In this document: one piece after another, positions 28,885 through 54,985 of the stretch
How positions within the stretch are numbered: position 1 is the stretch's first letter
Layout of the letters: each line of letters begins with the position of its first letter
Assembly: GCA_018223105.1 (NCBI GenBank)
Contig: JAAEYY010000005.1
Span: 64,918 to 128,917 of the forward strand
Direction of reading: 5' to 3'
Origin: a bacterium
GTDB lineage: Bacteria > Bacteroidota > Bacteroidia > NS11-12g > UBA9320
DNA length: 64,000 nucleotides
Position numbers and translations under genes: made by a program
The notes under the pieces: generated by a model
Database searches by the model: none
What the model was told of the DNA's origin: nothing
What the model saw: the letters and a program-made list of their open reading frames with translations, nothing else

Positions 28885-30111
28885 TTAATTAGCTTGCTTA
28901 AATGCAGTAGTTAATACATCAGTTTCACTTTGAATTTGTTCGTTCTCAAAACTATCCAAGTAGTTTTCAGTAACTCCCACGCTGCTATGTCCAAGCAATT
29001 CACTAATCATTTCAATAGTGGTCCCGGAACGTTTAAGAATTGTTGCAAAGCTATGTCGGGCAAAATATGTTGTAACCTCTTTGTTTATTCCAACTTCAGA
29101 AGCAATTTGCTTCATGTGCTTGTTGATTGATTTAGTAACAGACCAGTAAACATATTTTCTTTGTTCGGCATCCATATTGTTGTTGATGTGAGGAAAAATA
29201 TAAGCTTCCTTATTAATGGATAGCATTCCCCATTTTTCTATTATTCTAAGTGTTTCAGGTTTGAGGGCAACTGAGATTTGTTTGCTTTCCCGTCTGCTTC
29301 TTTTTGTCTTAGCCCGTCTGTATGTTAGCATATTGCCGTTAATATTGGACCACTTCAATAAGCAGAAGTCTTTTACATTCATACCATTACACAAGTATAA
29401 AAATAGCCAGTAGTCCTTAGCCTTGTCTTTTGCGCTTAATGGAGGACTTTCATAGTTGTAAATTTTTCCTATTTCATCAAGTGTCAAGGCCTTTTTGATA
29501 TTCTTACTGGTTGGTATTGTGTACTTGTTTTTACCTTTCCCAAATGGGTAAACCTTTGTGTTAATACTCTGAGAATTGTAGACCGTTCTCAAGCTTCTCA
29601 GATAAATACCGACTGTTGAGATGCTTTTGCCTTTGGTCATCATCCAATTTTCGTACTTCTTTAGAAATGATGGTGTAACTTCAGCAAAAGATAGATCTGA
29701 TTTATACTTGCTTAGGCTTACTTTGGCGTTGTGGTAGCTGTCTGCTGTTTTGAGTCTGTTTTCCAGTCGTAGGTTTTCAATGTATTTATCAAATGCGAAT
29801 GACACACTATCTGTTGTGTTCCTATGGTCCAAGTACATTTCTTGAAAAGCATCAAAAGAAAATACTGCTAGTGTTTTTATCACATCGTTAGCTTTATTCT
29901 CAAAGTATTCAGATTTGACCTTTAACTCTTTCTGTTCGTTGGTTTTTCTTTTTCCAAATAATGCCTGTTCAAACTCTTTCGACGTAGCATCTAATCCGGT
30001 GGAGTAGTATTTCCGTTTTCTGTTATAAGTTACTTTAATCTTGATTGAACACTTGCCGTTTTGCTTTGGTCGGTTTTGATCTAAATAAATAATGGCTGTT
30101 GCTTGATTCAT
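28885..30111 (-). CDS. Tyrosine integrase of element 1 (CTnDOT type)
   Basis: About 408 residues from the ATG giving MNQATAIIYLD. An arm-binding domain (residues 1-85, KIKVTYNRKRKYYSTGLD) and a SAM-like core-binding domain (about 95-195) precede the catalytic domain. Box II is FARHSFATILKRSG, followed by ELLGHSSVGVTENYL with His and the nucleophile Tyr. The usual first catalytic Arg is absent: the region reads YLCNGMNVKDFCLLKW, as in CTnDOT-like integrases. It lies 150 bases from the att copy at 30262, where its own element ends. Confidence 0.92.
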   Translation of the reverse strand: MNQATAIIYLDQNRPKQNGKCSIKIKVTYNRKRKYYSTGLDATSKEFEQALFGKRKTNEQKELKVKSEYFENKANDVIKTLAVFSFDAFQEMYLDHRNTTDSVSFAFDKYIENLRLENRLKTADSYHNAKVSLSKYKSDLSFAEVTPSFLKKYENWMMTKGKSISTVGIYLRSLRTVYNSQSINTKVYPFGKGKNKYTIPTSKNIKKALTLDEIGKIYNYESPPLSAKDKAKDYWLFLYLCNGMNVKDFCLLKWSNINGNMLTYRRAKTKRSRRESKQISVALKPETLRIIEKWGMLSINKEAYIFPHINNNMDAEQRKYVYWSVTKSINKHMKQIASEVGINKEVTTYFARHSFATILKRSGTTIEMISELLGHSSVGVTENYLDSFENEQIQSETDVLTTAFKQAN

Positions 30112-30261
30112 GTTTGTAACACAAATGTAACACAATAGCATATCAATATCACAAACTAAAGAACTATTAATACGTACTATAATGGCTTAGAAGAGCTAAA
30201 ATAAAAGGGGTATGCTTTGTTTTTGTTTTGAGTTGTTCAATTCTTGTTTTGTGTTGAAAAA

Positions 30262-33177: not shown

Positions 33178-33366
33178 ATGAATCGAATCAAAGAAGTGCT
33201 TGAAGAAAAAGGAATTAAGCAGACTTGGCTAGCTGAAAAACTTGGAAAGAGTTACAATATGGTGAACTCATATGTACAGAACAGACAGCAACCAAGACTT
33301 GAAGTGCTTTTCGAGATTGCCGAAATACTAGAAGTTAAACCACAAGACTTAATAAAAGACAAATAA
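33178..33366 (+). CDS. XRE-family regulator of the restriction locus
   Basis: A 62-residue helix-turn-helix protein, [12 protein letters not shown] then [19 protein letters not shown] and [16 protein letters not shown]. This is a minimal Cro/C-protein-like repressor often found directly before hsdM in Bacteroidota. The ATG at 33178 fits the family start; an in-frame ATG at 33136 would add 14 residues. Its TAA overlaps the ATG of the next gene by one base. It probably times expression of the restriction genes. Confidence 0.85.
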
Positions 33367-35510
33367 TGACAAGCATAAACCAAAGGGCTGAATTACAAGC
33401 TAAAATCTGGAAAATAGCAAATGATGTTCGTGGCTCAGTAGATGGATGGGACTTCAAACAGTTTGTGCTAGGAACGCTGTTCTACCGTTTTATCAGTGAA
33501 AATTTCACCAACTATATTGAAGGCGGTGATGAAAGCGTGAAATACCCAAGCCTTTCAGATGATGTAATTACACCCGAAATAAAGGATGATGCAGTTAAGA
33601 CAAAAGGCTACTTTATCTATCCAAGTCAACTTTTTGTCAATGTTGCCAAAACAGCGAATACCAATTCCAATCTTAACACCGACCTAAAAGCAATTTTTGA
33701 CTCAATTGAAAGTTCGGCAAACGGGTATCCCTCTGAACAAGACATTAAAGGATTGTTTGCTGATTTTGATACAACTAGCTCACGACTTGGTAATACCGTT
33801 GAAAACAAAAACAGCCGATTAGCATCCGTTATTAAAGGTGTTGAAGAGTTGAATTTTGGAAAATTTGAAGAAAGCGAAATAGAACTCTTTGGTGATGCCT
33901 ATGAATTTCTAATTGGTAATTATGCCGCCAATGCAGGAAAATCGGGTGGTGAATTCTTCACTCCTGTTCACGTTTCCAAACTCATTGCTCAATTGGCAAT
34001 GCATGGGCAAACCACCGTGAACAAAATTTATGACCCAGCAGCAGGTTCTGGCTCTTTGCTTTTACAAGCTAAAAAGCATTTTGATGACCACATCATTGAA
34101 GAAGGTTTCTTTGGGCAAGAGGTAAACCACACCACCTACAATTTGGCTCGTATGAACATGTTTTTACATAACATCAATTACGACAAGTTTCATATTGTAT
34201 TGGGTGACACATTAAGAAACCCACAACTAGCTGATGAAAAGCCCTTTGATGCCATTGTATCTAATCCGCCTTATTCTGTAAAATGGATAGGTGATGCTGA
34301 CCCCACCATGATCAACGATGACCGTTTTGCTCCTGCTGGTGTTCTTGCTCCTAAGTCAAAAGCCGATTTTGCCTTTGTACTTCATTGTTTAAGTTATTTA
34401 TCGAGCAAAGGTCGGGCTGCCCTAGTTTGCTTCCCTGGAATATTTTACCGTGGCGGTGCAGAACAGAAAATTCGAAAATACTTGGTTGATAACAACTATG
34501 TAGAAACAGTTATTTCATTAGCCCCAAATCTTTTTTATGGAACAACAATAGCGGTCAATCTTCTGGTACTTTCCAAACACAAAGCAGAAAATAAAACCCA
34601 GTTCATCGATGCAAGCGGTGAAGATTTCTTCAAGAAAGTAACCAACAACAATGTGATGACTGACAAGCATATTGCCAAGGTTGTGGAAATATTTGCTAGC
34701 AAGGAAGATATTGCGCATGTGGCAATCTCCATTGATAATTCTGCCATTGCTGAAAATGATTATAATTTGACCGTAAGTAAATACGTAGAACAAATAAGCA
34801 TACAGCAAGAGATTAATATTGATGATCTGAACGAAGATTTATATCAAACAGTTAACAAGATAAATTCCCTTCGCAATGACCTTAATGATTTAATAGAAAA
34901 TTTTACTGAAGACAATAACATTGATTTCATTTCAAAATTACTAGACGGGAGTTCGGTAGAATGGGTTACTCTTTCAGATATAGCCACGATTACAATTGGA
35001 GAATTTGTTCATAAAAGTAAGCAAGATGATTCTGCAGAATATCCAGTGTATAACGGTGGTATAACTCCAACAGGTTATTACAGCAAGTATAACAACACTG
35101 GGAATAAAATTATTGTTAGTGCCAGAGGTGCAAATGCTGGATTTGTAAATCGAATATCAACTCCATATTGGGCAGGAAATAGTTGCTATTCCGTTGGATT
35201 AATAAATCCAGAAAAAATCAATTGGATTTACATCTACTATTATTTGAAAGGGAACGAAAACCAATTGATTGGTGGACAGCAAAAAGGTGGTGGAGTTCCT
35301 GCAGTTTCTAAGAAACAGATGGAGTCATTCATGATACCAATTCCACCAATTGATGCACAAAATAGAATTGTTGACCTCATGGATGGATTGACAAGAACTA
35401 CCGCAGATTTAGAAGTGAAACTACAAAGCGAACTTGAAGCACGTAAAAGACAGTATGAATTTTACCGTGATATATTACTAACATTTCCTAAGGATAATTT
35501 AGAAGAATAA
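33366..35510 (+). CDS. Type I methyltransferase HsdM fused to a half HsdS
   Basis: A 714-residue fusion. Residues 1-520 are a complete HsdM: helical N terminus ([19 protein letters not shown]), SAM motif [12 protein letters not shown] at about 223, catalytic NPPYS at about 300, and the HsdM end [10 protein letters not shown]. From about residue 525 an HsdS begins without a break: [15 protein letters not shown] is the usual start of a specificity subunit, one target-recognition domain follows, and [20 protein letters not shown] is the usual HsdS C terminus. HsdS normally has two such domains; here only one. No separate hsdS exists. Dimerisation would predict a symmetric bipartite target. Confidence 0.9.
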
Positions 35511-35511
35511 C

Positions 35512-36624
35512 ATGGGACAGACGTTAATAGAAATAGCAACTAAGTTAAGGGATGCTAATAAAAAAGTGCAGTTAATCTATGCGTTTAACGGTTCAGGAAA
35601 AACACGTTTGTCTCGTGAGTTCAAAGAATTGATAGCACCAAAAAAACCTGAAAGTGAAGATGAAACTGGGGTTGAAGTCCTTTACTATAATGCCTTTACA
35701 GAAGATTTATTCTATTGGGATAATGATTTGGAAAACGATTCTGACAGGAAGTTAAAAATCCAGTCTAATGGTTACACCAATTGGGTACTTGTTGAACAAG
35801 GTCAAGAACCAAATATAGCGAGCCATTTTCAACGCTATACTAATGATAAACTAACACCAAAGTTTAACGAAGGATTTTCAGAAATCCGTTTCTCATTTGA
35901 AACAGGTGATGATTCAGATTCTGAATTTGTAAAGATTTCTAAAGGAGAGGAAAGCTGTTTTATCTGGAGCGTTTTTTACAGTTTGTTGGAGCAAACTATT
36001 AGTGTTTTAAATGTTGCAGAAGAAGCTGATCGAGAAACAGACCAATTCAACGACTTACAATACGTATTTATTGACGACCCAGTAAGTTCTTTGGATGACA
36101 CGCACCTAATTGAATTAGCGGTTGATATTGCTTCCTTAATTAAGTCCAGCACTTCTGAATTGAAGTTTATTATAACTACCCATAATCCATTATTCTACAA
36201 CGTTCTCTTCAATGAATTTAGTAGAGTGAAGAAAACGATGAAATGGCGTTTAGAAAAATTAATTGATGGTTCTTTTTCTCTTGCTGAGCAACCAAAAGAC
36301 TCTCCTTTCTCCTATCATCTATTTCTTTTATCTGAACTTGAAAAGGTGGTTGAATCAGGTGACATTCAAAAATATCACTTCAATTTTCTAAGAAATTTAT
36401 TCGAAAAGACTTCCACTTTTCTTGGCTTCAACAACTGGGAAGAACTGTTGCCCCAAGAATCAAGGCAAGCATATTATAATCGCATAATTAACCTATCTAG
36501 CCATTCAAAGCATAATGGTGAGGAAATTTCAATTATAGAAGAAAATGATAAGAGAGTATTGAGTTTTCTGGTAGGAGAAGTAAAAAGAATGTATGGTTTC
36601 AAATCCGCAGTTAATCAAGCATAA
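35512..36624 (+). CDS. PrrC-like anticodon nuclease candidate (AAA/ABC ATPase)
   Basis: A 370-residue protein between the methyltransferase and hsdR. The ABC-type ATPase part has Walker [12 protein letters not shown] (about 24-34), a signature-like ISKGEES, Walker [14 protein letters not shown] (about 184) and an H-loop ITTHNP (about 222). The C-terminal part contains R294-x3-E298 (RNLFE) and H331 (LSSHSKH). PrrC of E. coli uses Arg320, Glu324 and His356, nearly the same spacing, to cut tRNA-Lys. PrrC genes lie at the same place in type IC restriction loci. The alternative is an RloA-type ATPase without nuclease activity. The start codon is one base past the previous stop. Confidence 0.72.
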
Positions 36625-36633
36625 GAAAAGAAA

Positions 36634-39600
36634 ATGGCAACATATAAAACCATAGCGGAATCAAACAATTTCATCGTACTCGAAAAATATACGAAGTACT
36701 CTGAAGTGAATGAATCTCCTGCAAGCTATCAAACAGAGTCAGCTCTTGAGAGAGAGTTTATACAAGACCTAGTCAATCAAGGATATGAAAACCCTACAAA
36801 CCTAAATACCCTTGAAGCAATGCTGTCTAATGTAAGGGTGCAGTTGCAAGCTCTTAATGACATGGAATTTAAGGATGGCGAATGGGCTCGTTTTGTTGAG
36901 GAGTATTTAGATAAACCAGGAGATAACATTGTTGACAAGACAAGAAAAATACACGATAATTATATCTACGACTTTGTATTTGATGATGGCCATATCCAAA
37001 ACATCTATTTACTCGATAAGAAAAACATCGTTCGCAATAAAGTTCAGGTAATCTCTCAATTTGAGCAGACAGGTACACATGCCAATCGCTATGATGTGAC
37101 CATATTAGTGAATGGCTTGCCATTGGTGCAAGTAGAACTAAAAAAGCGTGGAGTTGCCATCCGTGAGGCTTTTAATCAAGTGCATCGCTACAGCAAAGAA
37201 AGCTTCAATAGTGAAAACTCTCTTTTTAAGTACTTACAGGTATTTGTCATTTCAAACGGCACGGACAGCCGATATTTTGCCAACACGGTAAAACGGGATA
37301 AAAACAGCTTTGACTTTACCATGAACTGGGCTAAAGCTGATAATTCCTTGATAAAGGATTTAAAGGACTTTACTCTTACATTTTTTGAAAAGCGTACGCT
37401 ACTAAATGTATTGGTCAATTATTCTGTATTTGATGTAAGTGATACTCTTCTAATCATGAGACCCTATCAAATAGCTGCAACCGAAAGAATTTTATGGAAA
37501 ATTGAAAGTTCTTATCAAGCTAAAAAATGGTCTACAAATGAAAGCGGTGGTTTCATTTGGCATACTACTGGGTCAGGTAAAACTCTTACCAGTTTTAAAG
37601 CAGCAAGACTAGCCACCCAACTTGACTTTATTGATAAAGTATTCTTTGTTGTTGACCGTAAGGATTTGGACTTTCAAACCATGAAAGAATATCAGCGGTT
37701 CTCCCCTGATAGTGTAAACGGTTCTGAGAGTACAGCAGGTTTAAAACGGAATATTGATAAAGAGGATAATAAAATTATAGTCACAACAATTCAGAAATTA
37801 AACAATCTGATGAAAAGTGAAAGTGATTTGGCTATCTATCAAAAACAGGTAGTATTCATCTTTGATGAAGCACACCGTTCACAATTTGGAGAGGCTCAAA
37901 AGAATCTTCAAAAGAAGTTCAAAAAGTATTTTCAATTTGGCTTTACTGGAACACCAATTTTCCCTCAAAATGCTTTGGGTTCTGAAACCACAGCAAGCGT
38001 TTTTGGACGTGAATTACATTCCTATGTAATTACAGATGCGATTAGAGACGAGAAAGTTCTCAAATTCAAAGTAGACTATAATGATGTCCGTCCGCAGTTC
38101 AAGGGCATTGAAACGGAAATTGACGAAAAGAAATTAAGTGCCGCAGAAAACAAAAAAGCTCTACTCCATCCTATTCGTATCAAAGAAATATCACAATACA
38201 TCTTACAGAATTTCAGACAAAAAACACATAGAACAAGAGGAGGAAATACTGGATTCAATGCCATGTTTGCCGTTAGTAGTGTTGACGCAGCAAAGTGCTA
38301 TTATGACGAACTGAACAACCTGCAAAATGACAGTGAAAAGCCTTTAAAAATAGCCACGATTTTTTCATATGCAGCCAACGAAGAACAAAACGCTATTGGA
38401 GAAATTGTTGACGAAACTTTTGAGCCTTCAGCAATGGATCAAAGCGCAAAAGAGTTCTTAAACAAAGCTATCAATGACTACAACACCATGTTTAAAACCA
38501 GTTATGGCGTTGAAAGTAAAGAGTTTCAAAACTATTACCGTGACCTTGCTAAAAGAGTAAAAAGCAAGGAGGTTGACCTAATTATTGTAGTCGGAATGTT
38601 CTTAACGGGTTTTGATGCACCCACATTAAACACATTATTCGTTGACAAAAACCTACGCTATCATGGTTTAATGCAAGCCTTCTCACGCACCAATCGAATC
38701 TATGACGCTACTAAAACATTCGGTAACATAATTACCTTCCGTGACTTAGAGAAAGCGACTGTTGATGCCATTACGCTGTTTGGAGACAGTAGCACCAAGA
38801 ATGTAGTCTTAGAAAAAAGCTATAAAGAATATTTAGAGGGCTTCACAGACATTGCAACAGGAGAAGCAAGAAGAGGATACATTGAAGTAGTAAATGAGCT
38901 AAATGCAAAGTTTCCTAACCCAGATGAAATAGCTACAGAGAAAGACAAAAAGGATTTTGCTAAGCTCTTTGGCGAGTACTTACGAGTTGAAAATATACTC
39001 CAGAACTATGATGAGTTCACCAACTTAAAAGATTTACAATCAGTCGATTTAAACGACCCAGAATCTGTTGAAGAATTCAAAGAATCTCACTTTGTAACAG
39101 ATGAAGACATTGCAGCAATGCAAGGAATTGAATTGCCAGCAGAACGTACCATTCAAGATTATCGCTCTACATATAATGATATTCGAGATTGGTTAAGAAG
39201 AGAGAAAAGTGGCAAGGAAGCCGAAGAATCAACAATTGATTGGGATGATGTAGTCTTTGAAGTTGACTTGCTTAAATCGCAAGAGATAAACCTTGATTAC
39301 ATTCTGGAACTAATCTTTGAACACAACAAGAAAACTAAGGACAAAGCCTCATTAATTGAAGAAATACGAAGAGTTATTCGTGCAAGTATCGGAAACAGAG
39401 CCAAGGAAAGTTTGGTGGTGGATTTCATCAATGAAACCGAACTTGATTCAATTCAGGATAAAGCGAGCATTATTGATGCTTTCTTCTCCTATGCACAAGG
39501 GAAACAAAAAGCAGAGGCAACCGAACTAATTACAGAAGAAAATCTAAATATCGAAGAAGCAAAAAGATACATTTCGGCTTCTTTAAGACGGGAATATGCA

Positions 39601-39741
39601 AGCGAGAACGGAACTGAACTGAATGCACTTTTACCAAAGATGAGTCCTTTAAATCCTCAGTATCTGACGAAAAAACAAAGTGTATTTCAAAAGATTTCTT
39701 CGTTTGTAGACAAATTTAAAGGTGTTGGAGGACAGATATGA
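36634..39741 (+). CDS. hsdR: Type I restriction endonuclease subunit HsdR
   Basis: A 1035-residue translocating endonuclease. The N-terminal PD-(D/E)XK nuclease shows [21 protein letters not shown]. The SF2 motor follows: Walker A HTTGSGKT (about 310), FDEAH (about 410), FGFTGTPI (motif III) and [11 protein letters not shown] (motif VI). A helical C-terminal domain fits assembly with HsdM. The size and the YQTE.ALE.EFI start match the type IC (EcoR124I-like) group, consistent with the fused HsdS part. It is the last gene of the operon, 9 bases after the ATPase gene. Confidence 0.95.
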
Positions 39742-40294: not shown

Positions 40295-40864
40295 TCAATA
40301 AACAAACAAGTCCTGAATCGAATAAAGGTCGTTCACCTCCTCTCGAGTAATATCCAGATAAATCCGCGTCACTGAAGTTGAAGAGTGGTTGAAGAGATAG
40401 GAAAGTTTAATCAGGGATGCTTCGCTGTAATTGTTTCGTTTCCAAACTTCCCTTCCGAAAGTTTTTCTCCATGTATGGGTGCTGATTCGTTTCCCCCTTA
40501 ATCCTGCCCGATAGGCAAGAATCTTTATCTGTTTATTGACCCCTCGAATTGTCAGGGGTATAACTGGTTCAGAAACTTTGGGGCAACCTAACCTTCTGTA
40601 AATAAAAAGAAGCTTATCAGAAAGTTCTTTCTGGATTGGGATTTCTCTCACCTTACCAGTTTTGGTCTCCTTAATTAGAAGTTCTGATTTACCAAGGATA
40701 TCATTCCAGGTGATTCTGGAGAGGTCTCCAAATCTCAAGGCCGTGGATGCCCCAAGTCTAACTACAAGATAATAGACCCAGTGGTTTTTTTGTGAAAGAT
40801 ACTTGAGGAGTTTATTCAATTCATGTTCTTCAAGTGCTTCTGCGGATTTGATTTTTACGCTCAT
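40295..40864 (-). CDS. Minimal tyrosine recombinase (catalytic domain only)
   Basis: A 189-residue recombinase, the size of FimB-type invertases. It starts almost directly at the catalytic domain: STALRFGDLSRI carries the first Arg, TKTGKVREIPI the Lys, HTWRKTFG the His-x2-Arg box, and LFNHSSTSVTRIYLDI the second His and the nucleophile Tyr. All six catalytic residues are visible, so it is likely active despite lacking the usual core-binding domain. Its start lies two bases from a perfect 14-bp inverted repeat (40866/40966). Such small enzymes commonly invert promoters in Bacteroidota. Confidence 0.85.
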   Translation of the reverse strand: MSVKIKSAEALEEHELNKLLKYLSQKNHWVYYLVVRLGASTALRFGDLSRITWNDILGKSELLIKETKTGKVREIPIQKELSDKLLFIYRRLGCPKVSEPVIPLTIRGVNKQIKILAYRAGLRGKRISTHTWRKTFGREVWKRNNYSEASLIKLSYLFNHSSTSVTRIYLDITREEVNDLYSIQDLFVY

Positions 40865-43317: not shown

Positions 43318-44943
43318 ATGAAATTAAAAATTAACAATCAACAGGATGTCGCAGGAAGCCACAGTCTGTTAAACGAAGAATCAAACAACAAAAACTTCAA
43401 GGGATCAACTAAAACTGACTTAGCCAACTCAAAGCTAAAGGATGTCAAATTGGAATCATTAGAGATTCACCCTTTTGCCAAAGAGTTTACTTTTCCAGAT
43501 CGCTCAAAACTTCTAAAGTTTTCAATGAGGAACCATGGACAACTAAATCCAATCCTTGTCGTTGAGCGGGATGGTCAACTTTTTATCATTGACGGAATTA
43601 GAAGATTTGAAGTGGCCAGACTATTCCCCTCGGAATTTCCTTCGATAACTTGTCAGATAGTTCAAATTACTGATAAGGAAATCAAAGACCACCGAATCAA
43701 AGTCAATGGCCACTCGAAAAGAGGTATAATCGAAATTTGTAGGAATGTCGATCACATCTTGGGAGTGTTGGGTAAGCAGCAAGGAGTGAAGAGGGAAATT
43801 CTTGACTTGAACAACATTGAATCTGAGTTTAAACCCAATATCAAAATGGATCGATTCCATTGGGCGTGTATAATCGCAAACATTGAGTTCAAAGCATCAA
43901 CATTGAAGAAACTCATGTATGTTTATTATGCTGAAGAGAATCAAGCTGAAAAGGATAAGACCAATATTTTAGAACTTCTGGATAAGGGACAAATTTCTGT
44001 TCATAAAGCCTATCAACTTACTAAATCTAAGGAGGCTAAAGAAGAGGAGATGGTTAAGAAACAAGAAATAATTAAGTTCTATCAAGAGCATAGAAATAAT
44101 CCAGAGAACGACTTGTATAAACTTTATGCAAAGAGTTCTCTTAAAATGGATGAAGTGCCAGACAACTCTGTCCGACTTTGTCTTTGTTCACCACCTTATT
44201 TCCAACAGCGATCATATCGAAACCAGGGAGAAAATCCACTCGGTCAAGAAGCAACATCTAAAGAGTACATTGATCGAATCATGGAATATAACATGGAAGT
44301 TAAGAAAAAGCTTCTTTCCAACGGTGTACTTGTCATAGTTATCGCAGAATCATATCTAGGAGGATATCAAGGGATAATACCTGAACTGATAGTGAGGATG
44401 AGAAGAAGTGGGTTCAGAATTTTAGATGAGAATGTATGGATCAAGACCAATCCAAAATACGCAAAACATTTTGGAAGATTTATGAATGCAAAGGAGTCTA
44501 TTATAGTAGCATGTAACTCAGACGAGGATCCTGTGTTCAACAACATAAAAACCGAGTCAGCAACTGGAAAGTTTAAGGTTAACAGAGGTTCAAAACGATC
44601 TGATGGAACAACCAATTATTACATGGCAGCACCTGAATCAGACCGAACAAATGTATTTACAACTCCAGTGTCAAACCCGAGAGATTTGAAGGCAATAGAC
44701 CCTACCTTCCAACATGACGCGCCCTGTAGAGTGGACATATATCAAGACTTCATCGAAGCCTACAGCAATGCTGGAGACGTAATCATAGACAACTTTGTAG
44801 GATCGGGAACTATAGCAATAGGACTCACAATGGGACGCAAAGTTATCGGATATGATATCGATCCAGAATCCATCGCATTTTGTGAAAAACGATTCAATAA
44901 GTACTTGGGTGAGCAAAATTCAGAACTTAAAGATGCTGCATAG
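43318..44943 (+). CDS. ParB-domain DNA methyltransferase
   Basis: A 541-residue fusion. Residues 40-110 form a ParB/Srx-like domain (LESLEIHPFAKEF, GQLNPILVVERDGQLFIIDG then IRRFEVARL). Residues 275-530 are a beta-class methyltransferase: catalytic CSPPYF at about 290, target region FGRFMNAKESIIVA, and SAM motif DNFVGSGTIAIG at about 490, in the order IV before I. SPPY is more usual in N4-cytosine enzymes, DPPY in N6-adenine enzymes, so N4-cytosine is the first guess. No cognate restriction enzyme stands beside it, so it may act as an orphan regulator or protect the element. Confidence 0.88.
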   Translation: MKLKINNQQDVAGSHSLLNEESNNKNFKGSTKTDLANSKLKDVKLESLEIHPFAKEFTFPDRSKLLKFSMRNHGQLNPILVVERDGQLFIIDGIRRFEVARLFPSEFPSITCQIVQITDKEIKDHRIKVNGHSKRGIIEICRNVDHILGVLGKQQGVKREILDLNNIESEFKPNIKMDRFHWACIIANIEFKASTLKKLMYVYYAEENQAEKDKTNILELLDKGQISVHKAYQLTKSKEAKEEEMVKKQEIIKFYQEHRNNPENDLYKLYAKSSLKMDEVPDNSVRLCLCSPPYFQQRSYRNQGENPLGQEATSKEYIDRIMEYNMEVKKKLLSNGVLVIVIAESYLGGYQGIIPELIVRMRRSGFRILDENVWIKTNPKYAKHFGRFMNAKESIIVACNSDEDPVFNNIKTESATGKFKVNRGSKRSDGTTNYYMAAPESDRTNVFTTPVSNPRDLKAIDPTFQHDAPCRVDIYQDFIEAYSNAGDVIIDNFVGSGTIAIGLTMGRKVIGYDIDPESIAFCEKRFNKYLGEQNSELKDAA

Positions 44944-46782: not shown

Positions 46783-47991
46783 TTGGCAACGTTTAAGATC
46801 ATATTGGATAAAAGAGTTAAGTTAAACGATGGAAAACACAACGTTGCAGTCCGCATATTCGAGCAAAAAAGATTTGTGGACATATACCTTACCAAACTCA
46901 CAAAAGTTGAATTCAAACGACTTATGGACATCCAATATCGGGACAACACATCTATCCAATTCAGAAAAGAAATGGATCGATCCATTGAGAAGGCGAAGCA
47001 GGTCTACGATCAAGTTGGTAAATTGGATAGAAAGAAACTTAGAGAACTGTTCTTCGCACCTCCAATTCAAGATAAAGTACCATTAGTAAGTGATGTCTTT
47101 GATGATTACATCAAGACGAGTATGATTGCACATAAGACCAAACGACGATTGACCTACTCTAGTAACGTGGTGAATCGATACTATGAAAATCTGGAAGTTT
47201 CAGATGTGACCCCTAGGATGCTGAAGTCCTTTGAAAGAAAGTTGAGTGAAAATGGGTTAAGTGTAAGCACTGTAGCCTCGATTATGCGCGACCTGCGGGT
47301 AATCATCAATTATGCAATGGGTGATGGTAATTATAAACTTCCTGAAGAGTATCAATATCCATTTGGGAAAAGGAAGTATTCCATTTCCAGCTGCTCCTCA
47401 ACCAAGGCGGTCCTGACTCTGGAAGAAACGCAGAAATTGGCCGCATTTGATGAGTTCAATGGGGACAGGAAATTGGAATACGCCCGCGATATCTGGTTGT
47501 TTCTGTACCGCTGTTCAGGTATAAATTTCATCGATGCGTTGACCATGAAATGGAAAGACATCAAGAACAACATGATCGTAATCTTCCGTCATAAAACAAA
47601 GAATACTACGGTATACAATAAGCGTCCCCTGACGATTCCAATTACACCTAAGGTTCAGGAGTTGCTTGACAAACTGGGGGAGAAGGATAGTCCTTACATA
47701 TTGGGGTTACTTAAAGAAGGAGCAAAGGAAACTACGATAGACAATAAAGGTCACAAGGTTAGGCGCCAAGTAAATCTAAAATTAAAAGAATTGGAGTCTA
47801 TCCTAAGTCTCAGTGTTCCACTTAGAATAAAGACGGCCAGAGAAACCTACATAACCCATTCAATAAGAAATAACCAGAGTGTTTCCAAAGTGGCTACAAT
47901 GGTAGGACATTCATCAACTGATATGATTAAACATTACTATGGAGGATTGGATGATGCGGAGATAATGAGTTTTAATGATGATTTGGCGTGA
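46783..47991 (+). CDS. Tyrosine integrase of element 2
   Basis: A 402-residue integrase with a TTG start and MATFKIILDKRVKLNDGKHN, an arm-binding domain (about 1-85), a core-binding domain (about 95-200) and a catalytic domain. Box II is IKTARETYITHSIRN, followed by MVGHSSTDMIKHYYGG with the His and nucleophile Tyr. The first catalytic Arg is replaced (YRCSGINFIDALTMKW), like CTnDOT-type enzymes. It is distant from both att copies, which is unusual if it alone moves the whole 33-kb island. Confidence 0.9.
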   Translation: MATFKIILDKRVKLNDGKHNVAVRIFEQKRFVDIYLTKLTKVEFKRLMDIQYRDNTSIQFRKEMDRSIEKAKQVYDQVGKLDRKKLRELFFAPPIQDKVPLVSDVFDDYIKTSMIAHKTKRRLTYSSNVVNRYYENLEVSDVTPRMLKSFERKLSENGLSVSTVASIMRDLRVIINYAMGDGNYKLPEEYQYPFGKRKYSISSCSSTKAVLTLEETQKLAAFDEFNGDRKLEYARDIWLFLYRCSGINFIDALTMKWKDIKNNMIVIFRHKTKNTTVYNKRPLTIPITPKVQELLDKLGEKDSPYILGLLKEGAKETTIDNKGHKVRRQVNLKLKELESILSLSVPLRIKTARETYITHSIRNNQSVSKVATMVGHSSTDMIKHYYGGLDDAEIMSFNDDLA

Positions 47992-49607: not shown

Positions 49608-49615
49608 TAATTTTG
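49608..49615 (+). promoter_or_regulatory. Candidate -7 element of the HATPase/PIN operon
   Basis: TAATTTTG matches TAnnTTTG and lies 19 bases before the ATG at 49635. No good -33 box is seen. The gap 49373-49634 otherwise shows no feature. Confidence 0.45.
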
Positions 49616-49634
49616 TGAATACCAACGACTTAAA

Positions 49635-50492
49635 ATGCCCCAAGCTAGACCAGTTTTTAATATTAATGACAGATTCTTAGAAGCGGACAATCGTGGATTG
49701 GCTAGAATTATTGACTTTTACCGGTTTGCATCCGCATACAGCAATACTTGGATTACACTGGATTTGAGTAGGTGCCAACACATGGATGCAAATTTGTGTG
49801 CCCCCTTGTTAGCTGTTATTGAGCTAGTAAAGACACAGAAACGAGTTAGAACTTTTATGGAGTTTGGCGACATAGTCAATGTTTTCTACAGAAATGGGAT
49901 GATGAGTCATCTTCAAGGTCTAGGCAACAATAATGAGTACGAAGATGAAAGGGAATCAACTATACCCCTAAAGAAATTTGACCAAGCTGATGATGAAATA
50001 TTTTGTAACTATGTGGCGAAAGATTTCTTTGGACATCGTGGGCTATTTAAAGTGCCAAAGAAGATTAAAGATGCTCTTGCCGAACACTATGCTGAGATCT
50101 TTACAAATGTAGGAATCCATGCCAGAACAGATCTTCCTGTGTATTGTTGTGGTCAATACTTCCCCCAAAAGAATGTTCTGAAGTTTACCCTTGTAGACTT
50201 AGGGGTAGGATTCCTTACTCCGATTCAAGAAAAGACTACTGGGGGAATTGATAATGATAATGATGCAATCATTTGGGCAACTAGTGATTTTAATACAACC
50301 AAGGATGAATCTCTTGGTCCTGGTGGAACAGGGTTGAAATTACTTAAAGAGTACTGTTACAAGAACAATGGATCACTTCACATCTGTTCCGGCAAGGGGT
50401 TTGTAAATATGTTGAATAACAGAGCTTTAGAGTTTAGAATGCCGCATCCATTCCCCGGTTCAATAATCAATATAATTATTAGAAAGATTTAA
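49635..50492 (+). CDS. STAS-HATPase fusion protein (anti-sigma-kinase-like)
   Basis: A 285-residue protein. Residues 30-110 look like a STAS domain (TWITLDLSRCQHMDANLCAP then LLAVIELV). Residues 150-285 form a GHKL ATPase: N-box EIFTNVGIHA, G1 box LVDLGVGF and G2 box GPGGTGLKLLKEYC. The pair recalls SpoIIAA/SpoIIAB or RsbV/RsbW partner switches, here fused in one chain. It is the first gene of a three-gene operon with a DUF4325 protein and a PIN nuclease. There is no membrane or sensor domain, so the input is unknown. Confidence 0.78.
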   Translation: MPQARPVFNINDRFLEADNRGLARIIDFYRFASAYSNTWITLDLSRCQHMDANLCAPLLAVIELVKTQKRVRTFMEFGDIVNVFYRNGMMSHLQGLGNNNEYEDERESTIPLKKFDQADDEIFCNYVAKDFFGHRGLFKVPKKIKDALAEHYAEIFTNVGIHARTDLPVYCCGQYFPQKNVLKFTLVDLGVGFLTPIQEKTTGGIDNDNDAIIWATSDFNTTKDESLGPGGTGLKLLKEYCYKNNGSLHICSGKGFVNMLNNRALEFRMPHPFPGSIINIIIRKI

Positions 50493-50498
50493 AATATG

Positions 50499-50506
50499 TA
50501 CATTTG
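50499..50506 (+). promoter_or_regulatory. Possible internal promoter before the DUF4325 gene
   Basis: TACATTTG matches TAnnTTTG 26 bases before the ATG at 50533, in the short gap after the HATPase gene. It would allow the DUF4325 and PIN genes to be made without the ATPase. Confidence 0.4.
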
Positions 50507-50532
50507 TGGTGTCAATTAGCCACTCAACACCT

Positions 50533-50871
50533 ATGTCAACTTATAGAATAACGGATATTATTGACTCCAATGTTGCTATTTCACCTAAGAAAGGGCTTAG
50601 GGTATTTGACTTTGTTCAACAAGAGTTACAAAAAGGGAATAATGTTACAATTTCATTTGAAGGAGTTACCAACTGCACCTCAGCATTTTGCAATTCCTTT
50701 ATCGGGAAATTGTTCATGACACATTCTGTTGAGATTCTTAATTCAAATCTGAGTATTGACACCGTTGGTAATACAAGGTGGCAGAGTAAGGTTGAAAGTG
50801 CAACAACCCTTGGTTCAAATAAGCGAGTTCAAGACTCTTTGAAAGATTCATATTCTTCACTTTCTGTATAA
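50533..50871 (+). CDS. DUF4325 STAS-like protein
   Basis: About 112 residues from the ATG giving MSTYRITDIIDSNVAIS; a GTG at 50506 overlaps the possible -7 box and is less likely. The core KKGLRVFDFVQQELQKGNNV, then TISFEGVTNCTSAFCNSFIG matches DUF4325, a STAS-like fold that is often encoded with GHKL ATPases. The Ser-rich segment NCTSAFCNS is where STAS antagonists are phosphorylated. It may bind the HATPase next door. Confidence 0.8.
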   Translation: MSTYRITDIIDSNVAISPKKGLRVFDFVQQELQKGNNVTISFEGVTNCTSAFCNSFIGKLFMTHSVEILNSNLSIDTVGNTRWQSKVESATTLGSNKRVQDSLKDSYSSLSV

Positions 50872-50877
50872 ATTAGA

Positions 50878-51462
50878 GTGGTTACTAGACTTCAAAATTG
50901 CCAAGTAGAGTCTAAGTACTATTTTTTTGATGCTAATGTTTGGCTTTACGCTTTGCAAGGTGATGATATTGCTTTGGAAAGGTGGGAAGAGAACTACAGT
51001 GATTTTCTGTATTCAGTTGTTGAAAGTGATTTAGATCCGAAGCCAAAGATACTAATGCCAGCTATTTTATATTCTGAGATTTTAAATGTCTACCTTAAGA
51101 AGATTAAATACAATGAGAGACTGGCAGAACTTGGAATGACTTCTCAAGACTATCAATATAAGAGGGATTTTAGGGGGTCTGCACAATACAATGAAAGTAT
51201 TGAAAACCTGTACGACGATATATCTGCGATTAGCGATTCCATTTTGTTTGTCGGAGATGACATTTTGTTAAACAACAATGATCCGCTTTATTTCGAACCT
51301 GGCTTTGGGAGCTTTGATTTCGCTGATTATTTCTACAGTAAACTCTGTCATGAAATCTCTAATAATCACGACTTGAGTATTGTTACCAATGATGGAGACT
51401 TTGATCAATGTCCGGTACACATTATTACGTCTAATCGTAATATAATCAGAGCGAGACAGTAG
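50878..51462 (+). CDS. PIN-domain ribonuclease
   Basis: A 194-residue PIN-fold protein. The four acidic positions are visible: FFDANVW (first Asp), LYSEIL (Glu), SFDFADYFYSKLC (Asp) and VTNDGDFDQC (Asp). PIN proteins cut RNA and are common toxins; VapC toxins are shorter (about 130 residues) and paired with a small antitoxin, which is missing here. The GTG start lies six bases after the DUF4325 stop, so the STAS/ATPase pair is the obvious controller. Confidence 0.85.
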   Translation: MVTRLQNCQVESKYYFFDANVWLYALQGDDIALERWEENYSDFLYSVVESDLDPKPKILMPAILYSEILNVYLKKIKYNERLAELGMTSQDYQYKRDFRGSAQYNESIENLYDDISAISDSILFVGDDILLNNNDPLYFEPGFGSFDFADYFYSKLCHEISNNHDLSIVTNDGDFDQCPVHIITSNRNIIRARQ

Positions 51463-52305: not shown

Positions 52306-53415
52306 TCACTTTATTGAATCTAAGTTGTTTAGATTGATCAACTTTCCATTCTTATAACAAAGCTCAATTAGTTTAAGGAAAACTGATTCAAAATCTTCTT
52401 TAATCCGAGAGTAGATGAAATTGGCGAGGTCTTCTATTTGTGCTGTATTTAGTTCATACTCCTTGTAAAGGAAATGCGCAGTATATTTCCACGCTTTGTT
52501 ACTGAGTTTGAGTTTATGATTCAATGCTAAATTCTTGAATTTTGTTAAGGCTTCCTGTTGTGCCAGAGTTGAACTAAATTCAATAATAATGGTGATTTTG
52601 TTTTTCCCTTCCATCATTTCTTTGAAATTCACAGTGTAGTATATGTCTTTGTGATTTTCCCTACTCCAGAAGTTCAAATATTCATAGCGCGTACGGTTTT
52701 CTTTGTAGATGTCAAGGTTTAATAGCCGTGCTAATTTCTCCATTTGGTGCCAAACGTACCCTTGAGCTTTGTTTTTACTGTTAATAGCTGCTTCAACTTG
52801 AGATGTATGGTCAAAGAAGAATTTAACTTCGTCATTCATTGTATTACTTTTTGTATGGTTTGTTATTGTTTGAAAAAAATCATTTAAATAGATGTAAAGT
52901 TTAAGTGGTAGTCCAGAGGGTAGTCCACGATCACGTATCTCATTTATCCAATCTATGTGTTTAATATTAATGAACTCGCTCTTCACTTCATCTGGAATAG
53001 GGTGGTCTTCCAAAGTAAGGAGCACACCAATCCTTTTTTTATTGGAGTAATGATTCAAATAATCTTCTAAGGGATTGTTTAAATGATGGTATAATTTGTT
53101 TTCAATTATGATTACATACTCATCATCATCTATTGCAATATCGATAGAACCATTTTCTGTTTTTACTTCTGTGTCAACACTATAAGAATTAAAAGTCTCA
53201 CTAGGTATTACAATGTTTTCAGTATTGATAACCGAAATTAACGATTCAATAAACAACTGAGCCAAGCCCTCATTATTATCCGCATCGAGAAAGTAGGCAT
53301 ATATGTTGCTGTTTATGTTCTCGCGGTGAGACTTTCTTATGATCTCCAAGAAGCCGTCTTCAGGATTGTCATTTATTGGTATCTTTAGTTTTAATAACTC
53401 GTTAAGTTCGTTCAT
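52306..53415 (-). CDS. PD-(D/E)XK nuclease superfamily protein (PDDEXK_4 type)
   Basis: A 369-residue protein. The nuclease core is at about residues 65-150: GSIDIAIDDDEYVIIIENKL, then NPLEDYLNHY. The front (NELNELLKLKIP, HRENINSNIYAYFLD) is typical of PDDEXK_4 proteins, which are common defence-island members. The C-terminal 170 residues are a helical and beta domain, possibly for target binding. Activity is predicted from the Asp, Glu-Asn-Lys and Tyr residues. Confidence 0.8.
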   Translation of the reverse strand: MNELNELLKLKIPINDNPEDGFLEIIRKSHRENINSNIYAYFLDADNNEGLAQLFIESLISVINTENIVIPSETFNSYSVDTEVKTENGSIDIAIDDDEYVIIIENKLYHHLNNPLEDYLNHYSNKKRIGVLLTLEDHPIPDEVKSEFINIKHIDWINEIRDRGLPSGLPLKLYIYLNDFFQTITNHTKSNTMNDEVKFFFDHTSQVEAAINSKNKAQGYVWHQMEKLARLLNLDIYKENRTRYEYLNFWSRENHKDIYYTVNFKEMMEGKNKITIIIEFSSTLAQQEALTKFKNLALNHKLKLSNKAWKYTAHFLYKEYELNTAQIEDLANFIYSRIKEDFESVFLKLIELCYKNGKLINLNNLDSIK

Positions 53416-53518: not shown

Positions 53519-54985
53519 TTAAGGAACCTTTGAATTTAAATCGTTCAAAATCTCCACCATCGCCCTTGTATCCATCTTGCAATACTCTAATAAAGCTCTT
53601 CTTGTTCCCTCAATGTCTCCTTCAAAAGTTCCTTGAACCATGGTAAGAAATGTGCTGCTAGCTGTTCCTCCTTCTTGGATCTCAAGGTTAGAATATGACA
53701 GTTCTGGGATTAGCGCTGGAAGTACTTTTTTAATGGACGACCTTCCTTGCATCTCTTTTGTGTAGTAGTATTTCCTGCGGAATGGGATCTCAAGGTCTTC
53801 AACACGAGGAACTAAGGCATCTAGTGGTTCTCTGTATTGTGGGAAGTCTCGTGCTAGTTCATTAATCCTTGAGACCTCAAATGATGAGTGATAAGCTAAG
53901 ATGGTTCCTTCAGTGCCAAGATCCTTCAGCATTGCCTGTATCAGTTCTTCTCTTGGGTCACCACCTCCTGATGGAGCAAGGTATTCACAGTGTTCACAGT
54001 CTCCATTGGGTTGTTGTTGAATGTGAACAGAATACTGAAAGGGTATCTGCTGATAGGTTCTAGAATTATCGAACATAGGCACAGCAGGCATGATGGTCTC
54101 AAAATCAAAATGGTATATGGGGTAGGTAAGTGTTTGAAGGAAATTTGTAATGCCATCCTGATTTATGTATGGCTTACTGGTGAGCTCAGCATCGCGTTGG
54201 ATCTGTTGCGCATCGCTCAGGTTGATATCAAAGGGGATATCCTCTATCAATTCGATTCCTCGTTCATATAATTCCCATTGTTTACCTCTGGCTTGTGTCA
54301 AGTTGAATACCGAATACTCTGGAACCTCTTTCCAACAATACGCACAGAAATCACATTCGTATGGGTCGGAGCACTGTGGTCCTATCTCAATGTCAGGTTC
54401 ACTAACCTGTTCTTGTACCTGCTTGAGCTCTTCAATGATTAAGGGGAGCTCTTCTTGTTTAGCTAGAACCTCCTCCGTAACGTCGGTGGATTTGAACAAT
54501 TGATGTACATCCAATTCACCTTGGCGCACATATTCGCCATCAAAAGTGATGATTGATATATCTTTGAGATCAATTCCTGATCCCTTGATCACATGATATT
54601 GAATGGCAGCATCGGTAATGTGAGGATCTTTAACGGAGTTAGTACTCTTAACCTCGTAACCGTGCCATCCATCTTCTCTCCTAACAAGTATATCAATGGC
54701 CACTAAAACGTCATTGTAAACGAAGGTTGCTTCGTAAATGACCTTAGCTGCCATTTTGAGATAGGCTTGGGTATTCTTGATTACCTGAAAGTTAGGATAG
54801 GGCTCATCCTGTTGTGCATCTGCACCATTTGGAAACAACTGCTGAGCCATTAATCCTACATTGGTTCCAGAATCGAAAATAGCTTGTTGCTGGTCACTGA
54901 CCTCTCGTAGATCATAACGATGTTTATATAGCCAAAGTGATTTGTGGCACTGAAGGCCGCGGACAATTTTTGATTTGGAAAGCAT
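53519..54985 (-). CDS. DUF2779 protein: Cas4-like nuclease plus exonuclease-like domain
   Basis: A 488-residue protein. It starts like DUF2779/Cas4-type RecB nucleases (LSKSKIVRGLQCHKSLWLYK); the PD-(D/E)XK core is DILVRREDGWHGYEVKS and AIQYHV (about 95-130), and the iron-sulfur cysteines are in QCSDPYECDFCAYC together with the early Cys. The second half begins with YHFDFETI (about 290), a DEDD-type exonuclease-like motif. It is divergent from a WYL regulator and shares with it a palindromic site at 55006-55028. Confidence 0.85.
   Translation of the reverse strand: MLSKSKIVRGLQCHKSLWLYKHRYDLREVSDQQQAIFDSGTNVGLMAQQLFPNGADAQQDEPYPNFQVIKNTQAYLKMAAKVIYEATFVYNDVLVAIDILVRREDGWHGYEVKSTNSVKDPHITDAAIQYHVIKGSGIDLKDISIITFDGEYVRQGELDVHQLFKSTDVTEEVLAKQEELPLIIEELKQVQEQVSEPDIEIGPQCSDPYECDFCAYCWKEVPEYSVFNLTQARGKQWELYERGIELIEDIPFDINLSDAQQIQRDAELTSKPYINQDGITNFLQTLTYPIYHFDFETIMPAVPMFDNSRTYQQIPFQYSVHIQQQPNGDCEHCEYLAPSGGGDPREELIQAMLKDLGTEGTILAYHSSFEVSRINELARDFPQYREPLDALVPRVEDLEIPFRRKYYYTKEMQGRSSIKKVLPALIPELSYSNLEIQEGGTASSTFLTMVQGTFEGDIEGTRRALLEYCKMDTRAMVEILNDLNSKVP

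What the first reader, a model, noticed from the sequence alone, without database searches (positions are those of the whole stretch)
49608..51462. Candidate new system: STAS-HATPase, DUF4325 and PIN nuclease
Three tightly packed genes combine a fused STAS/anti-sigma-kinase-like ATPase, a STAS-like protein and a PIN ribonuclease. Partner switching normally controls sigma factors; here the output is probably an RNA-cutting toxin. A signal (for example nucleotide state or phage interference) could release the PIN protein. I know no described system with this set.
Basis: partly seen in the sequence, partly recalled or inferred. Interest (0 to 1): 0.8.

Follow-up and report, generated by a model that had tools for sequence, protein, structure and literature searches.

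The report
Kinase-guarded toxin trio (VapKSC) member
The three genes are a real, widely conserved anti-phage suicide module in which a kinase frees an RNA-cutting toxin from its guard protein; this design was published in 2026 as VapKSC, and what looks new here are relatives that lost the kinase together with the site it marks, including lone guard proteins on predicted phage contigs.

Summary
In detail: a STAS-GHKL kinase, a DUF4325 STAS-like protein and a PIN nuclease lie in one tight operon (49635-51462). It is not chance: the same A-B-C order occurs in 65 of the best 80 relatives across many bacterial phyla and archaea, on a Deinococcus plasmid and on prophage contigs.

Profiles of B and C match the crystallised Escherichia VapS and VapC (PDB 9z7o, E 4e-26 and 2e-16). 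This system was published in June 2026 as VapKSC (PMC13373217): VapS inhibits VapC, VapK is proposed to phosphorylate VapS Ser48, and VapC is released. The window has the equivalent Ser (S50), the PIN acidic residues and the kinase motifs.

Three findings go beyond that paper's main text. (1) Kinase and phosphosite go together: Ser/Thr in all 121 VapS whose locus has VapK, but Pro, Ala or Met in nearly all VapK-less ones (Methanosarcina VapS-VapC pairs, orphan VapS, lone VapS on predicted phage contigs). (2) In three Flavobacteriaceae genera VapK-VapS follows an anti-phage dCTP deaminase, without PIN, and VapS lacks its toxin-blocking tail. (3) The module often sits inside restriction-modification operons.

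The parts
49635..50492 (+). VapK-like protein: N-terminal STAS domain (about 1-100) and C-terminal GHKL serine-kinase domain (about 110-285)
   Evidence: GHKL motifs E154, N158, H162, D188-x-G190, T222, G231-x-G233 nearly invariant in 105 relatives; AF2 model pLDDT 91.7, best PDB fold matches SpoIIAB 1tid/1til/1th8; profile hits to STAS proteins 1sbo and RsbS
50533..50871 (+). VapS-like antitoxin (DUF4325, STAS-like) with a C-terminal tail; GTG start at 50506 also possible
   Evidence: Pfam PF14213 1.9e-10; profile matches Escherichia VapS, PDB 9z7o_A, E 3.8e-26; AF2 model pLDDT 85.8
50680..50682 (+). Codon for Ser50 of VapS, the predicted phosphoacceptor (equivalent to Escherichia VapS Ser48), at the N-terminus of the helix 50-63
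   Evidence: Residue aligned with Escherichia VapS Ser48; Ser/Thr in 105 of 105 VapK-containing loci and 16 of 16 in a second set; helix start in the model
50878..51462 (+). VapC-like PIN ribonuclease toxin (GTG start)
   Evidence: Pfam PF01850 6.7e-5; profile matches Escherichia VapC 9z7o_C, E 1.5e-16; acidic residues D18, E67, D147, D150, D172, D174 near-invariant in 103 relatives

Best explanation
The operon is a VapKSC kinase-gated toxin-antitoxin module used against phages. In resting cells VapS (B) binds the PIN ribonuclease VapC (C) through its STAS domain and its C-terminal tail blocks the active site. When phage infection or DNA damage produces the signal (probably single-stranded DNA), the STAS-GHKL kinase VapK (A) phosphorylates Ser50 of VapS, VapS lets go, and free VapC cuts RNA (tRNA or rRNA, exact target unknown) and arrests the cell. 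Shown for the Escherichia homologue by others: VapC toxicity, VapS neutralisation, loss of neutralisation and binding with S48E or of neutralisation without the tail, and phage protection lost with VapC D28A, VapS S48A or VapK F54A. Shown here: gene order, residues, fold, co-inheritance, and the link between the phosphosite and the kinase. Inferred: that the window copy works the same way, that VapK phosphorylates VapS directly, the ssDNA trigger and the RNA target.
For: Sequence match to the solved VapS and VapC and the published function (PMC13373217). Conserved order in 65 of 80 genome relatives across phyla and archaea, a Deinococcus plasmid and prophage contigs. Phosphosite Ser/Thr in 121 of 121 VapS whose locus has VapK, but Pro/Ala/Met in nearly all VapK-less ones, with VapK absent genome-wide in three Methanosarcina genomes. 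A folds like SpoIIAB. All PIN acidic residues present. Neighbours include type I and III restriction genes.
Against: No experiment on this copy. The window VapK has His49 where 92 of 105 relatives have Trp or Phe; this column is probably the ssDNA-stacking residue (Escherichia F54), a mapping I inferred without the Escherichia VapK sequence. Loci with Ser/Thr in VapS but no VapK exist: L078 and L195 have broken VapC, L089 is a lone VapS, L205 has intact VapS-VapC but an intact VapKSC elsewhere in its genome.
Confidence: 0.92

Rival explanations
1. The window copy is a recently damaged or retuned VapKSC: the genes are intact, but the kinase no longer senses ssDNA because the stacking aromatic is His, so it responds to another signal or not at all.
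For: His49 in only 2 of 105 VapK-like proteins; its nearest relatives L002 and L003 keep Trp there.
Against: All three ORFs are intact with every catalytic motif; His can also stack on bases; the mapping to Escherichia F54 is inferred.
Confidence: 0.05
2. A and B form a CapK/CapS-type transcription switch and the PIN gene is merely the regulated downstream gene.
For: CapK and CapS share the kinase and STAS domains with VapK and VapS (PMC13373217); other A-B pairs occur without PIN.
Against: B is only 112 aa with no winged-helix DNA-binding domain and A has no HTH; B matches VapS, which binds VapC directly.
Confidence: 0.02
3. A chance neighbourhood: an ordinary VapC beside an unrelated anti-sigma-like pair.
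For: PIN toxins are common, and the Pfam PIN score is just above the cut-off.
Against: Same three genes in the same order in 65 of 80 relatives; distances co-vary, r 0.79-0.89.
Confidence: 0.01

Closest known systems
VapKSC (Escherichia sp. E4736; PMC13373217; PDB 9z7o)
   Same: Gene order, domain make-up, phosphoacceptor Ser in VapS, PIN acidic residues, homologous VapS and VapC by profile search.
   Different: Distant member (window A only about 25-35% identical to its relatives); His at the presumed ssDNA-stacking position; window VapC has a longer stretch before the DFxD motif.
CapK + CapS (PMC13373217)
   Same: STAS-GHKL kinase paired with a STAS protein that carries a conserved Ser.
   Different: CapK has an N-terminal HTH and CapS a winged helix and represses transcription; here B has no DNA-binding domain and the output is a toxin.
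SpoIIAB/SpoIIAA and RsbW/RsbV partner switches
   Same: GHKL kinase fold and STAS substrate with the acceptor at the start of a helix.
   Different: Output is a PIN nuclease, not a sigma factor; the kinase carries its own STAS domain.
VapBC toxin-antitoxin
   Same: PIN toxin with a neighbouring antitoxin.
   Different: Antitoxin is a STAS protein released by a kinase, not a DNA-binding VapB removed by proteolysis.
PrrC/EcoprrI
   Same: Latent RNase associated with a restriction-modification system (VapKSC often lies beside or inside such operons).
   Different: Works-alike only; no sequence relation. A real PrrC-type I system lies 10 kb upstream in the window.

Membership tests
VapKSC | Three-gene operon vapK-vapS-vapC in this order | tested here: met
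   49635-51462, + strand, 13-40 bp and 6 bp gaps
VapKSC | VapK with STAS and GHKL kinase domains, no N-terminal HTH | tested here: met
VapKSC | VapS homologous to Escherichia VapS with the conserved Ser/Thr (S48) | tested here: met
   Profile hit 9z7o_A E 3.8e-26 with the Ser aligned; window S50
VapKSC | VapS C-terminal tail needed for toxin inhibition | tested here: met
   Tail length of the window protein lies within the range of all VapC-containing loci, 58-81 residues from the FLN motif; function not tested
VapKSC | VapC PIN nuclease with conserved catalytic Asp (D28) | tested here: met
   Profile hit 9z7o_C E 1.5e-16; window D18 and other acids conserved
VapKSC | Conserved aromatic (F54) for ssDNA in VapK | tested here: inconclusive
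   Likely column is Trp/Phe in 92 of 105 but His49 in the window; mapping inferred
VapKSC | VapC toxic alone, neutralised by VapS, released by VapS phosphorylation; phage protection | not testable with these tools
   Shown for the Escherichia copy, except that VapS phosphorylation by VapK was not measured directly
CapK + CapS | CapS carries a winged-helix DNA-binding domain | tested here: not met
   B is 112 aa, DUF4325 only
Sigma-factor partner switch | A sigma factor in the same operon | tested here: not met
   No sigma factor among neighbours in the window; PIN gene instead
DISARM (DrmA) | DrmA helicase | tested here: not met
   The PADLOC DrmA model matches A only over positions 73-251 of 1750, about the kinase region; A is 285 aa, far too short for a helicase

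The most novel reading that the evidence does not exclude
Phages carry phosphorylation-proof VapS copies as counter-defence: lone VapS-like proteins on predicted phage contigs (L135, L139, L142, L148 with Pro; L137 fused to an AAA ATPase with Met at the acceptor) keep the VapS fold but cannot be phosphorylated, so they hold VapC or trap VapK and switch the defence off. In the same logic Methanosarcina turned VapKSC into a plain two-gene VapS-VapC toxin-antitoxin pair by losing the kinase and fixing Pro at the acceptor.
Probability: 0.28. Interest if true: 0.78.

Novelty: new member of a known kind. Interest (0 to 1): 0.45.

Why it matters
It places a deeply diverged Bacteroidota-like copy in a defence system described only months ago, and extends that system to archaea, to predicted phage contigs and to a second effector. 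The rule found here (Ser/Thr in VapS whenever the kinase gene is present, Pro/Ala/Met in nearly all cases when it is gone) is comparative support for the phosphorylation step, which the paper inferred from mutants but could not measure with VapK, and it makes a sharp prediction about phage-borne VapS that can be tested in a few plaque assays.

Tried and rejected
Profile of A as query for the genome collection failed (no stretch conserved enough) and found nothing in viral contigs; the B profile worked. Centres for the genome search could not be loci directly. A read-through B-C fusion for folding was dropped because MAFFT mixed B and C rows. Foldseek with the B model gave no significant PDB hit, only weak RsbS/RsbV matches; the solved VapS was not listed there. 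NCBIfam did not recognise A, B or C usefully. Papers: searches for DUF4325 and STAS-like + toxin-antitoxin + PIN missed VapKSC; the PDB sequence match revealed it. DISARM (DrmA model hit) considered and rejected. The dCTP-deaminase link was checked in 300 Flavobacteriaceae-family genomes: 5 have such a deaminase; one of these is the same locus as L061, and the other four show no VapK/VapS in the loci read, so it is one sub-lineage.

Full report
WHAT IS THERE. Three adjacent ORFs on the + strand, 49635-50492 (A, 285 aa), 50533-50871 (B, 112 aa from ATG; a GTG at 50506 would add 9 aa) and 50878-51462 (C, 194 aa), with gaps of 13-40 and 6 bp. B is DUF4325 (PF14213, E 1.9e-10) and C is PIN (PF01850, E 6.7e-5, just above the curated cut-off). 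A has no Pfam match, but a 60-row profile of its relatives matches the STAS proteins TM1442 and RsbS in its N-terminal part. Its AlphaFold2 model (pLDDT 91.7, pTM 0.92) is closest to the serine kinase SpoIIAB, and STAS proteins such as TM1442, RsbV and RsbS are also hit. The genome holds one copy.

IS IT A UNIT? Yes. In a first sample of 395 genomes of the class and one of the phylum, relatives of A with the best scores were followed by B and C in the same order. A Deinococcus gobiensis plasmid carries the same trio, annotated 'ATP-binding protein', 'STAS-like' and 'PIN'. A scan of one genome per species with a profile of B gave 239 relatives, of which the best 80 were kept; 65 of the 80 have A, B and C in that order and strand, in Bacteroidota, Chlorobiota, Pseudomonadota, Nitrospirota, Planctomycetota, Chloroflexota, Elusimicrobiota and methanogenic archaea among others. 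Nine of 15 viral contigs also carry the trio in whole or part. Pairwise distances of A, B and C correlate (r 0.89, 0.80, 0.79 for AB, AC, BC over 92 loci; permutation maximum 0.16), so the three travel together.

WHAT IT IS. Profiles of B and C match two chains of one PDB entry, 9z7o: 'Escherichia VapS' (E 3.8e-26) and 'Escherichia VapC' (E 1.5e-16). The paper behind it (PMC13373217, EMBO J, 9 June 2026) describes VapKSC: a CapK-like STAS-GHKL kinase (VapK), a STAS antitoxin (VapS) and a PIN toxin (VapC). There VapC is toxic unless catalytically dead, VapS neutralises it, a VapS without residues 94-116 or with the phosphomimic S48E does not, S48E VapS no longer co-purifies with VapC, and the operon gives about 2 logs of protection against phage Bas42, lost with VapC D28A, VapS S48A or VapK F54A. 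The authors propose that ssDNA activates VapK but could not test it, because VapK was insoluble; phosphorylation of VapS by VapK was therefore also not measured directly. In the alignment the column of VapS Ser48 falls on window Ser50, which starts a helix in the AlphaFold2 model. The window protein C has Asp18 at the column of VapC Asp28, and the acidic residues D18, E67, D147, D150, D172 and D174 are near-invariant among 103 relatives. The kinase motifs of A are near-invariant too. The trio is therefore a VapKSC member, and its mechanism is, with high probability, the published one.

WHAT THE PAPER DOES NOT REPORT (main text searched; its supplements were not read). First, the phosphosite follows the kinase. 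In the first set, the acceptor position is Ser or Thr in 105 of 105 loci with A, but among 14 loci without A it is Pro (11), Met (1) or Thr (2). In a second set taken afterwards from Methanosarcinia, Gammaproteobacteria and Planctomycetota it is Ser or Thr in 16 of 16 loci with A (one read by eye). Without A it is Pro in 24 and Ala in 3 (one read by eye), with four sequences too incomplete to score. Exceptions without A but with Ser/Thr are L078 and L195, whose PIN genes are broken; L089, a lone VapS; and L205, whose genome has an intact trio elsewhere. Most Pro cases are one Methanosarcina clade of VapS-VapC pairs; three such genomes have no VapK anywhere. Others are separate: Ala in Methanosarcinia (L166, L171) and Planctomycetota (L197) orphans, Pro in a Bacteroidales orphan (L105), Pro or Met on predicted phage contigs (L135, L139, L142, L148, L137). 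The best tree needs 7 changes of the acceptor and 9 of the kinase label, but its well-supported branches force only one, so independence is likely, not proven.

Second, predicted phage contigs. Five IMG/VR contigs of about 62-412 kb carry a VapS-like gene without VapK or VapC beside it. Neighbours fit phage genomes for L135, L137 and L142 (HNH endonuclease, exonuclease, ribonucleotide reductase in PHROGs); for L139 and L148 the PHROGs scan gave no support beyond IMG/VR. All lack a phosphorylatable residue, and in several the C-terminal tail is altered. A kinase-proof decoy is the tempting reading, either holding VapC or trapping VapK; I give it 0.28.

Third, another effector. In Dokdonia, Tenacibaculum and Mesoflavibacter (L057, L060, L061) VapK-VapS follows directly on a protein that matches anti-phage dCTP deaminase (PADLOC 9.3e-120 for L057; NCBIfam 2.7e-88, below its cut-off), and no PIN gene is found. 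Their VapS proteins end 51-53 residues after the FLN motif, shorter than every VapS with a VapC (58-81): the tail that is needed to block VapC is missing where VapC is missing. This looks like an effector exchange.

Fourth, restriction-modification. The commonest recurrent neighbours are type I methylase, specificity and restriction genes and type III Mod and Res. In L116, L118 and L133 the trio begins with a 4-base overlap behind Mod, and in these and L115 a Res-like gene follows. The paper reports 36% of loci within 10 kb of a defence gene. In the window itself a type I system with an embedded PrrC lies 10 kb upstream.

LIMITS. Nothing here tests activity. The window VapK has His49 in the column that is Trp or Phe in 92 of 105 relatives. 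I believe this is the ssDNA-stacking residue (Escherichia F54), but I did not have that sequence. The VapS model alone gave no significant fold hit, so the family link for B rests on the sequence profile. The 80 genome loci are the best-scoring ones, so the share with all three genes is biased upwards.

VERDICT. Observation confirmed; mechanism idea right; novelty claim overtaken by VapKSC. New member of a known kind, with kinase-less, orphan and effector-swapped relatives that deserve follow-up.

Noticed in passing
window 33366-39741: Type I restriction-modification operon: HsdM fused to a specificity domain, a PrrC anticodon-nuclease homologue (PADLOC 1.9e-141) and HsdR.
   Followed up: partly
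window 22818-56983: Defence island downstream of tRNA-Met with three tyrosine recombinases (28885-30141, 40295-40864, 46783-47991), a DNA methylase with a weak ParB_N match (43318-44943), VapKSC and a PDC-S26 candidate defence gene (52306-53415).
   Followed up: partly
window 53519-54985: DUF2779 protein with a weak Cas4-like nuclease match, next to a PDDEXK_4/PDC-S26 protein; a DUF2779-like protein appears also beside a dCTP deaminase in L216 (by eye).
   Followed up: no
L013, L014, L018, L049, L053: VapK-like and VapS-like parts in one chain of about 415-432 aa, with no PIN gene nearby: a possible single-protein version with unknown output.
   Followed up: no
L041:479-1111, L044:2602-3216: A clearly different PIN-like protein (FVDTNxxI...) sits in the VapC slot next to restriction genes; homology to the main VapC group was not detected by the profile.
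   Followed up: no
L137:3634-5271: AAA ATPase fused to a VapS-like domain on a 142-kb predicted viral contig, with Met at the acceptor position.
   Followed up: partly
L205:1282-2504: VapS with an N-terminal extension of about 110 aa and an unknown upstream gene instead of VapK, with Ser kept: a possible different regulator.
   Followed up: no
window 49635-50492: The PADLOC DrmA model matches VapK over about 180 residues (3e-10), so automatic tools may misfile VapK as part of DISARM.
   Followed up: no
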